From a virus, in IMG/VR virus record IMGVR_UViG_3300047557_003879, positions 1 through 20,814 of that record: DNA of 20,814 nucleotides. One strand, 5' to 3'. The notes below the pieces were generated by a model. It worked only from the letters and a program-made list of their open reading frames with translations. It had not been told where the DNA came from and did not search any database. How positions within the stretch are numbered: position 1 is the stretch's first letter; each line of letters begins with the position of its first letter. Below are positions 5,212 through 15,639 of the stretch, piece by piece. Position numbers and translations under genes: made by a program.

Positions 5212-5460
5212 ATGTTAGTCAAAAAACCATCACCAGTTTTATTACAAATAGTTTACTACATGCCAAAACATCCTACTTTGGTACAGGAATTTACATGGGG
5301 GTATGATGATCATACTCCAGAGCTTATCAGAACTCATAAGTTTTTAAATTACTGGAAAAATCATGTGGATGCAGTAATTGCAGATATTTTTATTAGCATA
5401 AGTAATGGTAAACAGTATCAATGGCGAAATGTTGACGACATTTTAAAATTTCATGGCTAA
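5212..5460 (+). CDS. Usg-family-like small protein
   Basis: The 82-residue product resembles the Usg family (COG5425), small proteins I know from alphaproteobacteria, where the gene lies among tryptophan genes and has no established biochemical role. Shared pattern: a strand ending IVYYMPKHP, then LVQEFTW, a D..P spacer, HKFLNYW, a negatively charged helix and a short IADIFISIS strand, in the order and spacing of Usg (I-Y-x-hP-x-H-x4-F-x-W ... FL-x2-W). AAGGAG at 5203-5208 is only 3 bases from the ATG. It overlaps the large-terminase N gene by 8 bases, so it is likely coupled to it. The family call rests on remembered Usg sequences and not on a search. Confidence 0.6.
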   Translation: MLVKKPSPVLLQIVYYMPKHPTLVQEFTWGYDDHTPELIRTHKFLNYWKNHVDAVIADIFISISNGKQYQWRNVDDILKFHG

Positions 5461-5884
5461 AAATACAACCGACTTTCAAAAACTAAAAGCTCCTAACCAA
5501 CCTACAAATTATACTAAAGAACAATTGCAAGAACTTGTCAATTGTGCAAAAGATCCATTGTACTTCATGGAGAAGTACATGTATGTACAGCACAGTGTCA
5601 AGGGAAAAATACCATTTGAAGCATATGAATTTCAAAAAAAATTAATACACGGTTATAATAATTTTAGAAATGTCATTGCCATGATTCCGCGTCAAAGTGG
5701 GAAGTGCATTTCAAGTCATGTCCAAATGTCAATAAAAAATAAACAAACAGGGGAAATTTTTGAAATACCAATTGGAATCTATTATGAATGGGCAAGATGC
5801 ATGCGAGACGGCAGAACCCCTCCAGACATCTCAGTCTATAAGAAACATGAAGTTGTTTCAACAAATGACGGATGTGTGAATTAA
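5453..5884 (+). CDS. 17: Large terminase N-part (gp17) fused to N-terminal half of a split intein
   Basis: Residues 1-84 are the N-terminal part of the phage DNA-packaging motor ATPase: the FMEKYMYVQH stretch, the adenine-binding region around FEAYEFQKKLI and the start of the Walker A loop, MIPRQSGK. Where the next Thr should follow, the chain continues with CISSHVQMSI, an intein block A with the nucleophile Cys85, and ends after 59 intein residues at TAA 5882-5884. The rest of the terminase lies downstream in another frame and begins with the matching intein half. Protein trans-splicing would join Lys84 to the Thr of the downstream product and restore RQSGKTTTAAG. The gene overlaps the Usg-like gene and has no clear ribosome-binding site of its own. 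Confidence 0.9.
   Translation: MAKNTTDFQKLKAPNQPTNYTKEQLQELVNCAKDPLYFMEKYMYVQHSVKGKIPFEAYEFQKKLIHGYNNFRNVIAMIPRQSGKCISSHVQMSIKNKQTGEIFEIPIGIYYEWARCMRDGRTPPDISVYKKHEVVSTNDGCVN
5705..5881 (+). other. N-terminal half of atypically split intein (59 residues)
   Basis: The segment starts with Cys (the acyl-shift nucleophile) in CISSHVQMSI and continues with a TGEIFEIPIGIYYEW stretch typical of intein block A and the following strand. It stops before any block B. No homing-endonuclease motif is present. Most natural split inteins break after block B, near the endonuclease insertion site, with about 100 residues on the N side; this one breaks between A and B, as in the described AceL-TerL and VidaL inteins. 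Confidence 0.88.
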
Positions 5885-5910
5885 TCCCAGGTTTATAATA
5901 AAAATAATAT

Positions 5911-5930
5911 TTGTCAATAAAATTTGACAA
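5911..5930 (+). promoter_or_regulatory. Inverted repeat in the gap between the two terminase genes
   Basis: TTGTCAA (5911-5917) and TTGACAA (5924-5930) form a perfect 7-base stem with a 6-base AT loop, 10 bases before ATG 5941. The RNA hairpin would be weak. It is directly followed by AATAAATA, which overlaps its last two bases (5929-5936). It could influence translation of the second gene, which lacks a visible Shine-Dalgarno sequence, or be chance in AT-rich DNA. Confidence 0.3.
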
Positions 5931-5940
5931 TAAATATAAA

Positions 5941-6309
5941 ATGCAGAAAATTTCAGAACTAGTAGAGAGAAAATTTATAGATCAAGTTAAGATTGACGAT
6001 TGGGAAGTATTGACAGATACTGGGTGGTCTCCGATAGAATCTGTGTCAAAAACCGTTGAATACCAGATTTATATACTAGAATTGGCATCTGGTAAACATC
6101 TTGAGTGTGCTGATACTCATATAGTTTTTGATGATCAATATAATGAGGTATTTGTCAAAGACTTAATTCATGGGCAGATGATTATAACATCTGATGGCCC
6201 AGAAAAAGTTGTAAGTGTTACCAAAACCTCTGAATACGAAAATATGTATGATCTTTCTGTAGCCAGCACTAATCATAGGTATTATACTAATGACATTCTT
6301 AGTCATAAC
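5941..6309 (+). other. C-terminal half of atypically split intein (123 residues)
   Basis: In order: a charged leader (MQKISELVERKF), a DWEVLTDTGW strand, block B in GKHLECADTHIVFDD (with Ala in place of the usual Thr three residues before the His), the EVFVKDLIHGQ segment, block F in YDLSVASTNHRYY, and block G in DILSHN with the usual penultimate His and terminal Asn. The residue after the splice point is Thr, which is an accepted +1 nucleophile. No LAGLIDADG or HNH endonuclease lies between blocks B and F. The part could be 10 residues longer if TTG 5911 is used. Confidence 0.88.
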
Positions 6310-7653
6310 ACAACCACCGCTGCTGGATTTTTATTACACTATGCATTTTTTAATCCTGATGTAACTATTTTAATTGCAGCTAACAAGTTTAAATCAGCAA
6401 ACGAAATTATGTTAAGAATCAAATATGCATACGAAGAAATGCCTAATTTTATTCGTCCTGGTGTTATTGAATACAATGTGACCAGTATAAGATTTGATAA
6501 TAGTAGCAGAATACTGGCCACTACTACAACCCCTGATTCTGGTCGTGGTATGGCTATTAGCTTACTATACTTGGACGAATTCGCATTTGTGAAGCCGCGA
6601 ATGGCCACTGAATTTTGGTCTGCTATGGCTCCAACCTTGGCAACAGGTGGAAAGTGTATAATTACAAGTACCCCGCAAAGTGACGAGGACATGTTTGCCG
6701 ATATTTGGAAAGGAGCAAATGTAACTGTAGACGAAGACGGTAACGAGCTTCCTGATGGTGTTGGAATTAACGGATTTAAGTCTTTTAGTGCACATTACAG
6801 TGATGTGCCAGGACGAGATGAAAAGTGGGCACAAAAGGAAATTGCCAAGATAGGAATGGAAAAATTCCAAAGGGAATACCTGTGTCAATTTGCCGGTGAA
6901 GAAAGTACTCTTATTAATAGTTTGTCTTTGCAAAGACTCCGTGGCATAGATCCCATTTATACAAAACATGATGTTCGCTGGTACGAAAAAATTTCACCCG
7001 ACAAAACATATTTGGTGAGCTTAGATCCTGCGGCGGGTGTTCATAAAGATTATAGTTGTATTGAGGTTTTTAGTTTACCTGATTTAAAGCAGGTAGCTGA
7101 GTGGGTCAGTAATAAAACGGCTATTCCTAACCAAGTTAAGTTACTTCACACTGTGATTGGAACAATATTTAATGAAATGAAAAAGCAAGGAACAAGATCT
7201 GAGCCTGAAATATATTTCACTATAGAAAACAACAGTTGGGGTGAAGCAGCTATACAGTCTGTAAATGATATTGGTGAAGAAAACTTTATGGGACAATTTT
7301 TACATGAACCCAAACGTCCTGGCGTTCCACGGTATAGAAAAGGTTTGAACACCAATGGCAGAACTAAAAGTAGTGCCTGTTCAAAGTTAAAAACACTTGT
7401 AGAAGCCGGTCGTTTAACAATTAACAGCAAGTTATTAATAAGACAATTGAAGTTTTTTATTAGTAAAGGCGACAGTTTTGCTGCTAAACCCGGCGAGAAC
7501 GATGACACGGTTATGAGCACTCTATTATGTATTAGAATGATGCAAATGGTTACAAATTGGGATGATAAAGTTGGTGAGGCTATGAAAGATGTGTTTGACA
7601 CAGATTCGGCTGATTTTAGAGATCCTTTGCCATTTTCAGTTGTAATTACGTAA
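5941..7653 (+). CDS. 17: Large terminase C-part (gp17) preceded by C-terminal half of a split intein
   Basis: ATG 5941 is the first ATG in the frame (open from TTG 5911); both starts lack a clear ribosome-binding site. From 5941 the first 123 residues are the C-intein, ending DILSHN at 6309. The remaining 447 residues, starting TTTAAGFLLHYAF, are terminase: Walker B and catalytic Glu in SLLYLDEFAFV, the coupling motif IITSTP, and the RNase H-like nuclease with LDPAAG (first Asp, codon 7024-7026), FTIENNSWG (Glu) and GENDDTVMS (last acidic pair). Spliced with the 84 residues encoded upstream, the motor would be 531 residues, a plausible gp17 length. The packaging ATPase therefore depends on trans-splicing, since Walker A Lys and Thr lie on different polypeptides. 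Confidence 0.9.
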   Translation: MQKISELVERKFIDQVKIDDWEVLTDTGWSPIESVSKTVEYQIYILELASGKHLECADTHIVFDDQYNEVFVKDLIHGQMIITSDGPEKVVSVTKTSEYENMYDLSVASTNHRYYTNDILSHNTTTAAGFLLHYAFFNPDVTILIAANKFKSANEIMLRIKYAYEEMPNFIRPGVIEYNVTSIRFDNSSRILATTTTPDSGRGMAISLLYLDEFAFVKPRMATEFWSAMAPTLATGGKCIITSTPQSDEDMFADIWKGANVTVDEDGNELPDGVGINGFKSFSAHYSDVPGRDEKWAQKEIAKIGMEKFQREYLCQFAGEESTLINSLSLQRLRGIDPIYTKHDVRWYEKISPDKTYLVSLDPAAGVHKDYSCIEVFSLPDLKQVAEWVSNKTAIPNQVKLLHTVIGTIFNEMKKQGTRSEPEIYFTIENNSWGEAAIQSVNDIGEENFMGQFLHEPKRPGVPRYRKGLNTNGRTKSSACSKLKTLVEAGRLTINSKLLIRQLKFFISKGDSFAAKPGENDDTVMSTLLCIRMMQMVTNWDDKVGEAMKDVFDTDSADFRDPLPFSVVIT

Positions 7654-14544: not shown

Positions 14545-15639
14545 TTAGGCACTTTGAATTCGTGCTTGATTACTTGCGGTTAGGTCTCTATTACTCATAA
14601 TCCAATCAAATTCATTGCCATTATATGTGTAAACAGTTCTATTTCTGATTTCTTGTGCATATTGAACTGTGTTGATTGGTCCAAGTGTTACGGATGGGAT
14701 TGCTGTATATGCTGATCCACCATTTGTAATGGTCACACCTGAAATGCTACCTGCTGCATTGACAGTAGCAGTTGCGGCGGCGCTACCAGAACTAAATGTC
14801 ACGGCAGCAATATCAAAGTCAGTTCCACCGTTTGTGACAACGACGTTGCTGACAGTCCAAGTAGCATTTACTGTTGCTCCAGTGCCAGCACCACTTGTAG
14901 TAGTTGAGACAGGGTTTGCTGGTAGTGCACTGAATACACCCCTGGTGGCTACTGTCAAGTTTGCAAGGCCCCAGCGAACGTTAAATGTGGCACCAGATCC
15001 GTTGCTTGCACTGTTGCTACCCTGCAAGGTTGTTCCAGAAATAGTCTGAATACCGGCAGCGTTACGGATGCCGCCTCCAGCTACTTCTGTAAATCCAGTT
15101 ATTGATCCACCAGCACCTGTGCTTGATACGGTGATTACTGCGTTGCTTACCCAACCGGCTCCACCAAACGTAATCTGGTTGCCAATCTGATAGTTTGTTC
15201 CAGCAGCGTTAATTGCCAAGTTGCCAACTCTAATGCCAGTAACGGTGTAACTAGCCACGGCAGTGTTTGTTCCACCGAGAAGAGTCACTGTGTCGTTGAT
15301 CTCGTAGTCAGCTGTGATAACACCAGTCCCACTAACAGCAATTGTTGCGTCACTTGCTCCCATACGTACTGTGCCTGTAGCGCCAGATCCACTTGCACCA
15401 TATGGTGTAACAGTGATATTTGCTTGACCTTGCTGTAAAGCTACACCACCCTGGGCTAGTTTTACGACCCCGGTATACGCACCATCAGCGGTTGTCATTT
15501 TATATGATTTGTTCGCTACCTGTTTGTTGATGTATGATAATGCAGGGGCTGGTGCTCCTGGTATCCATGCGGTTGCTTGTATTTGTTGTCCTGATTGGCT
15601 TGTATTGCCAATAAATCTATTATTAATAGGGCGACCCAT
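14545..15639 (-). CDS. Repeat-rich beta-structured virion protein (fibre or decoration type)
   Basis: The 364-residue protein is very rich in Gly, Ala, Thr, Ser, Val and Asn and contains imperfect repeats of about 40-60 residues with the pattern GTGV..YEINDTVTL, GTNYQIGNQITFGG and GGSAYTAIPSVTLG, that is, strand-turn-strand units seen in phage fibre and capsid-decoration proteins. The opening MGRPINNRFIGNTSQSG and the close FDWIMSNRDLTASNQARI look conserved in marine T4-like phages. AAGGAG lies 6 bases before its ATG. Its base composition is clearly GC-richer than the flanking genes. It stands alone on the minus strand between recombination and replication genes, with its own terminator, and looks like an insertion into the early region. 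Confidence 0.75.
   Translation of the reverse strand: MGRPINNRFIGNTSQSGQQIQATAWIPGAPAPALSYINKQVANKSYKMTTADGAYTGVVKLAQGGVALQQGQANITVTPYGASGSGATGTVRMGASDATIAVSGTGVITADYEINDTVTLLGGTNTAVASYTVTGIRVGNLAINAAGTNYQIGNQITFGGAGWVSNAVITVSSTGAGGSITGFTEVAGGGIRNAAGIQTISGTTLQGSNSASNGSGATFNVRWGLANLTVATRGVFSALPANPVSTTTSGAGTGATVNATWTVSNVVVTNGGTDFDIAAVTFSSGSAAATATVNAAGSISGVTITNGGSAYTAIPSVTLGPINTVQYAQEIRNRTVYTYNGNEFDWIMSNRDLTASNQARIQSA

What the first reader, a model, noticed from the sequence alone, without database searches (positions are those of the whole stretch)
5453..7653. Large terminase gene broken in its Walker A loop by an atypically split intein
The upstream gene ends its terminase part at ...PRQSGK and continues with a Cys-starting intein block A; the downstream gene starts with intein blocks B, F and G, ends ...DILSHN, and continues TTTAAG. 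Joined, they give an intact Walker A and a 531-residue gp17. The split is between blocks A and B (59 + about 123 residues), not at the usual site after block B; AceL-TerL and VidaL are the described precedents that I know. The N half here is longer than the 25 residues of AceL-TerL. Because the ATP-binding loop is divided, packaging is impossible until trans-splicing happens, so splicing could time packaging. No single indel or substitution can fuse the halves: the N frame stops at 5882, the C frame has a stop at 5905, so at least two changes would be needed.
Basis: partly seen in the sequence, partly recalled or inferred. Interest (0 to 1): 0.9.

Follow-up and report, generated by a model that had tools for sequence, protein, structure and literature searches.

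The report
Packaging motor split by trans-splicing intein
In this jumbo-phage fragment the DNA-packaging motor (large terminase) is made as two separate proteins, each carrying half of a self-splicing intein that must rejoin them at the ATP-binding loop; this is a real member of a known kind (atypically split inteins), and its relatives show the steps by which such splits arise, lose their nuclease gene and become hard to undo.

Summary
ORF 5453-5884 encodes the first 84 residues of a T4-type large terminase, ending ..PRQSGK, then a Cys-starting 59-residue IntN. The second ORF (probably ATG 5941, to 7653) encodes a 123-residue IntC ending ILSHN, then the other 447 terminase residues starting TTTAAG. 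Twenty close relatives (about 70-77% identical) have no intein, with the two parts directly contiguous at GK|TT.

The intein is not unique. The same family sits at this P-loop in many phages: continuous (L047; Ackermannviridae), split with a homing endonuclease (HEN) ORF between the halves (about 20 loci, including L036 in the window's own clade), split with a truncated or lost HEN (L008, L028, this window, L043), and split with halves about 79 or 173 kb apart on opposite strands in two cultured phages (VmeM-32, SCTP-2). Both halves are under purifying selection, the splicing residues are present, and a continuous relative folds confidently as an intein whose best solved match is VidaL. The split falls where the AceL/GOS-TerL consensus intein is split.

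Trans-splicing itself is inferred.

The parts
5453..5704 (+). N extein: first 84 residues of the large terminase (gp17), ending ..PRQSGK, the 5' part of Walker A
   Evidence: PHROG terminase large subunit 4.8e-14; contiguous with the C extein in 20 homologues
5705..5881 (+). IntN: 59 residues, Cys1 at 5705; conserved core 5705-5839 (45 aa), unconserved tail 5840-5881
   Evidence: 47-54% identity over the whole stretch to L008 and L028; dN below dS in the core
5882..5884 (+). Stop codon TAA of the N precursor
5885..5940 (+). 56-nt gap between the halves; holds a 7-bp A+T-rich hairpin (5911-5930); no endonuclease gene or detectable remnant
   Evidence: no Rfam match; no terminator-like site
5941..6309 (+). 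IntC: 123 residues from ATG 5941 to the terminal Asn (..NDILSHN)
   Evidence: Pfam Intein_splicing 3.7e-07 on 5911-6309; 54-59% identity to L008, L028 and L036; profile match to VidaL, gp41-1 and CatC
6106..6129 (+). Intein block B (CADTHIVF) with the conserved His
   Evidence: A, D and H invariant in 30 family members
6241..6309 (+). Intein blocks F and G (NMYDLSVASTNHRYYTNDILSHN), penultimate His and terminal Asn
   Evidence: M, D, H and N invariant in 30 members
6310..7650 (+). C extein: 447 residues of terminase starting with Thr+1 (TTTAAG..), with Walker B (LLYLDEFAFV) and the nuclease domain; stop 7651-7653
   Evidence: PHROG terminase large subunit 5.9e-115; Pfam Terminase_6N 1.1e-12

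Best explanation
The two ORFs are the two precursors of one T4-type large terminase. Each carries one half of a class-1-type intein inserted between Lys and Thr of Walker A. After translation IntN and IntC associate, Cys1 and Thr+1 carry out the acyl shifts, the terminal Asn cyclises, and the exteins are ligated into the 531-residue enzyme with an intact P-loop (splicing steps inferred, not shown). The element is a mobile, selfish intein of the atypical split type (break between blocks A and B). It probably descends from an arrangement with a free-standing Vsr/I-Bth0305I-like homing endonuclease gene between the halves; in this lineage that gene has been lost while the terminase gene stays split (seen in relatives, inferred for this window).
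For: Exact empty site in 20 homologues. Same two-part architecture in independent contigs, and a continuous version of the same intein in L047 and in Ackermannviridae. In cultured phages VmeM-32 and SCTP-2 the halves lie about 79 and 173 kb apart on opposite strands, with one N-half match per genome, so terminase there depends on joining in trans. Splicing residues conserved. Purifying selection on both halves. Continuous homologue modelled at pLDDT 88 as a Hint domain with the flexible loop at the split place; best solved match VidaL by fold and by profile, CatC also found. Window clade holds L036 (endonuclease-sized ORF present), L008 (truncated) and L028 (remnant). Inteins more alike than exteins between L028 and L036.
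Against: No splicing or expression data. ATG 5941 lacks a clear Shine-Dalgarno sequence, unlike several genes of the window. The window is a fragment, so another terminase cannot be excluded. No endonuclease remnant is detectable in the window gap itself. IntN alone matches no Pfam or NCBIfam family.
Confidence: 0.88

Rival explanations
1. The locus is decaying: the intein can no longer splice after loss of the endonuclease gene, and another terminase supplies packaging.
For: The endonuclease gene is absent, the IntN tail is unconserved, the C half lacks a clear ribosome-binding site, and the genome is incomplete.
Against: All splicing residues and the terminase motifs are intact and both halves show dN well below dS. 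The cultured split relatives have a single N-half match.
Confidence: 0.05
2. A continuous intein was broken by a sequencing or assembly error.
For: A continuous homologue exists (L047).
Against: No 1-2 nt indel tested restores one frame, and the same split with the same C-half start occurs in L008, L028 and L036 from other samples.
Confidence: 0.03
3. The split intein is a retained regulator: slow or conditional trans-splicing sets when packaging starts.
For: Walker A is incomplete until splicing; P-loop insertion makes terminase activity depend on it. Reviews propose such roles for P-loop inteins (PMC5050341).
Against: Most close relatives have no intein, an unrelated intein can occupy the same bond (L022, L026), and the element looks mobile. 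Selfish insertion into a conserved site explains the position.
Confidence: 0.04
4. The two products are joined by RNA splicing, or work as two chains without any joining.
For: A terL intron exists in phage ICP1, and a nuclease-split ribonucleotide reductase works as two chains (PMC10448857).
Against: No Rfam match in 5600-6400. The inserted sequence is protein-coding intein under selection. Walker A Lys and Thr would lie on different chains with intein fragments attached.
Confidence: 0.02

Closest known systems
AceL-TerL / GOS-TerL atypically split inteins (consensus Cat; CatC, PDB 6dsl)
   Same: Split between blocks A and B in a terminase large subunit; CatC aligns along nearly the whole IntC, so the break is at the same place; Cys1 as in AceL-TerL.
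   Different: Insertion at Walker A with Thr+1, against Cys+1 for GOS-TerL (PMC11766414; for AceL-TerL from memory), so another site in the gene. IntN 59 aa (core 45) against 25 and 37 aa. Low sequence identity.
VidaL intein (PDB 6vgv)
   Same: Best solved match by profile (2.6e-11) and by fold (TM 0.84 over VidaL); naturally split with a very short IntN (from memory).
   Different: About 17% identity in the structural match; IntN far longer here; host gene of VidaL not checked.
Mycobacteriophage TerL1-a intein
   Same: Insertion between the invariant Lys and Thr of the terminase Walker A motif (PMC5050341).
   Different: Found in a different terminase family (Terminase_1); the paper's text does not mention split inteins.
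Ackermannviridae TerL inteins (PhaxI, BX-1; intein noted in terminase of Salmonella phage Mooltan, PMC6486243)
   Same: Same intein family at the same P-loop bond.
   Different: Continuous, one gene.
Fractured genes (Dassa et al. 2009; a PolB example in phage MIJ3, PMC6892783)
   Same: Split intein; in close relatives (L036 and others) a homing-endonuclease-like ORF lies between the halves, with an I-Bth0305I/Vsr-like C-terminal domain.
   Different: The window has lost the endonuclease gene; the MIJ3 nuclease is HNH; the original paper could not be read.

Membership tests
Class 1 intein (Hint splicing domain) | Cys or Ser at position 1 | tested here: met
   Cys1 at 5705-5707; Cys in L008 and L028 as well
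Class 1 intein (Hint splicing domain) | Block B His, penultimate His, terminal Asn, and Cys/Ser/Thr at +1 | tested here: met
   Invariant H112, H175, N176 (L047 numbering) in 30 members; Thr+1 here
Class 1 intein (Hint splicing domain) | Hint fold | tested here: met
   Only for the continuous homologue L047: pLDDT 88, 64 PDB matches at E <= 0.001, top ones inteins. The window halves were not folded together
Class 1 intein (Hint splicing domain) | Splicing activity | not testable with these tools
   Needs expression of both precursors
Naturally, atypically split intein (AceL/GOS-TerL, VidaL type) | Halves on two separate genes | tested here: met
   Separate ORFs in different frames, not joinable by a 1-2 nt indel
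Naturally, atypically split intein (AceL/GOS-TerL, VidaL type) | Break between blocks A and B, not at the usual endonuclease site | tested here: met
   CatC aligns with profile positions 16-122 of the IntC; break in the flexible loop 32-56 of L047
Fractured gene (split intein with a homing endonuclease gene between the halves) | Endonuclease gene between the halves | tested here: not met
   56-nt gap in the window; present in L036 and about 20 relatives. The window is therefore not filed under it, only as a probable derivative
T4-type large terminase (gp17) | ATPase and nuclease domains with Walker A and B after splicing | tested here: met
   Pfam Terminase_6N above cut-off, Terminase_6C just below it; PHROG terminase 5.9e-115
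Self-splicing RNA intron | Catalytic intron RNA between the exons | tested here: not met
   No Rfam match up to E 0.1 in 5600-6400

The most novel reading that the evidence does not exclude
This P-loop intein family is a natural series of how split inteins evolve: a homing endonuclease gene settles in the disordered loop between blocks A and B of a continuous intein and fractures the gene; the endonuclease gene is then lost repeatedly without the gene re-fusing (window, L028, L043 and others), and in some phages the halves drift to distant loci (VmeM-32, SCTP-2): a ratchet that makes an essential motor depend on trans-splicing.
Probability: 0.5. Interest if true: 0.65.

Novelty: new member of a known kind. 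Interest (0 to 1): 0.52.

Why it matters
Described natural inteins split between blocks A and B are few. This family adds dozens, with Cys1/Thr+1 chemistry, a different terminase insertion site and longer N fragments, which is useful for protein-labelling tools and for the question of how split inteins arise. Closely related alleles with and without the endonuclease ORF (L043/L044), a continuous relative (L047), and cultured phages with the halves far apart make the origin and loss of splitting directly testable.

Tried and rejected
Small-indel repair of the frames: none works. RNA intron: no Rfam match. Endonuclease remnant in the window gap: none found, whereas L028 has one. Terminator between the halves: none; promoter-like sites about as many as in shuffles. 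IntN alone is too short and diverged for Pfam and NCBIfam. Two mixed alignments misplaced the IntN fragments, so the structure job used L047 plus IntC rows only. The endonuclease model is poor overall (pLDDT 62); only its C-terminal domain is usable, and its matches are weak by E-value. Plasmid search with the intein: no match. The primary papers on fractured genes, GOS-TerL, Cat and split-site rules are not held, so statements on them rest on reviews or on memory and are marked. L071 was first labelled as possibly continuous in the tree; its ORFs show a long N-half extension overlapping the C half instead.

Full report
Observation. The window is an entire 20,814-base virus record. ORF 5453-5884 encodes 84 residues of a T4-type large terminase ending ..IAMIPRQSGK and then 59 residues beginning with Cys. 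After the stop at 5882 and a 56-nt gap, a second ORF in another frame encodes an intein part ending ..NDILSHN and then 447 terminase residues beginning TTTAAGF. Pfam identifies Intein_splicing and Terminase_6N in the second ORF, and PHROGs calls both exteins terminase. In 20 homologues about 70-77% identical over the C extein, the N and C exteins are directly adjacent at the same residue. Of the other nine, five are split at the same place (L008, L012, L016, L017, L028), one shows an IntC at a contig end (L025), two carry a different, continuous intein at this bond (L022, L026), and one is truncated (L029). No 1-2 nt indel tested restores one frame; single larger deletions would.

Anatomy. The homologous start of the C half is ATG 5941 (MQKISE), matched by MHRISE, MHAMSE and MHSISE in relatives; the TTG at 5911 is not conserved. 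IntC is then 123 residues. IntN is conserved for about 45 residues and unconserved for the last 14. Cys1, the block B His, block F Asp, penultimate His, terminal Asn and Thr+1 are present. The continuous homologue L047 models as a Hint domain (pLDDT 88, pTM 0.81) with one low-confidence stretch at about residues 32-56, which is where the other members are split. Its best solved match by fold is VidaL, and the family profile finds VidaL, gp41-1 and the AceL/GOS consensus CatC. CatC aligns along almost the whole IntC, so the break is at the same place as in AceL/GOS-TerL.

Family. Searching with the IntC alignment gave 51 viral loci. Several states occur: continuous (L047; Ackermannviridae, with 294 cultured-phage records covering at least 80% of a TerL-plus-intein query); split with a 0.9-1.5 kb gap holding an endonuclease-like ORF (about 20 loci); split with a truncated ORF (L008) or a remnant (L028); split with a short gap or overlap (window 56 nt, L067/L069, L072, L050, L063, L043); and split with the halves far apart. 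The last is seen in complete genomes of cultured phages: VmeM-32 (N half 79,965-80,273 minus, C half from 1,111 plus) and SCTP-2 (N half about 429.4 kb minus, C half about 256.4 kb plus), each with one N-half match. L043 and L044 are 93-98% identical on either side of the gap, yet L044 has the endonuclease-like ORF and L043 does not, and L043 remains split. Members in L042, L048, L049 and L059 sit in the P-loop of a gene that looks like gp46 (sequence reading only, not tested).

Mobility and selection. The window forms a supported clade (99/92) with L036 (endonuclease ORF present), L008 and L028. On the tree the short-gap state needs at least five changes on supported branches, so the endonuclease gene has come or gone repeatedly. 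L028 and L036 inteins are 71-72% identical while their exteins are 44-52% identical, and the window-L036 inteins (59%) also exceed their exteins (49%): the element has moved between phage lineages. Differences are concentrated at third codon positions and dN is well below dS in both halves, with dS partly saturated. The L036 endonuclease model is poor overall, but its C-terminal domain matches Vsr and the homing endonuclease I-Bth0305I, weakly by E-value (0.03-0.05; probability 0.98-0.99).

Mechanism. The best explanation is protein trans-splicing that restores Walker A. Shown: gene anatomy, homology, conservation, insertion site, modelled fold of a continuous homologue, architecture series. 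Inferred: association of the halves, ligation, expression of the C half (no clear Shine-Dalgarno sequence at ATG 5941), and past presence of an endonuclease gene in the window's own lineage. Timing of packaging is not supported; a sporadic, mobile distribution is enough to explain its presence.

Comparison with what is known. P-loop K|T inteins in terminases are known in mycobacteriophages (PMC5050341). An intein in the terminase of a Salmonella myophage was noted (PMC6486243). Split inteins with a nuclease gene between the halves are known (PMC6892783; Dassa et al. 2009, cited there, not held). Atypically split inteins are described with IntN of about 15-25 aa (PMC12707363), and GOS-TerL with 37 (PMC11766414). 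The combination here, an A/B-split intein at the terminase Walker A with Thr+1 and a 59-residue IntN (about 31-62 in the family), was not found in the library searched, which lacks most subscription papers. I file it as a new member of a known kind; the family-level series is the more interesting part.

Noticed in passing
L033 2733-4374 (Escherichia phage vB_Ec-M-J) and relatives: Terminase is annotated as two overlapping ORFs whose frames cross by +1 exactly at Walker A (RQM / GKTT), with no intein. The 64-base stretch is identical in nine records; possibly a programmed frameshift.
   Followed up: partly
L022 4765-6100, L026 4774-6100, L023 5700-6100: A different, continuous intein (Ala1, LAGLIDADG-like) sits at the same terminase GK|T bond; L023, from the same sample as L022 and 90-94% identical, has the empty site.
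   Followed up: partly
L111 / L094 (vB_VmeM-32) and L109 (SCTP-2): The VmeM-32 terminase C half carries a second, continuous intein at Walker B (DE|C), and the SCTP-2 C half runs into another intein-like stretch and ends early, so that gene may be in three pieces.
   Followed up: no
L042, L048, L049, L059: The same split intein family lies at the P-loop of a different gene that looks like gp46/SbcC.
   Followed up: no
L042 1962-3023, L044 1500-3005, compared with L036 1853-3022: Endonuclease-like ORFs between the halves share an N-terminal region but some end in what looks like a GIY-YIG domain instead of the Vsr-like one.
   Followed up: no
L075 1170-2894 (minus strand): Between the split halves lies a 575-codon ORF on the opposite strand with WGVDN repeats and a Vsr-like EFNGLYWH..IWEDDW motif.
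   Followed up: no
L093 3986-5008 (Caulobacter phage Cr30): A homologue of the L036 endonuclease (34% identity) lies directly upstream of an intein-free terminase gene.
   Followed up: partly
L095 301-1361 (vB_VmeM-32): uvsX also appears to be broken, with a SegG-like endonuclease gene between the pieces and a HintC domain annotated on the second.
   Followed up: no
window 14545-15639 (minus strand): A 364-aa Gly/Thr/Ser-rich ORF on the opposite strand to its neighbours, with no PHROG match.
   Followed up: no
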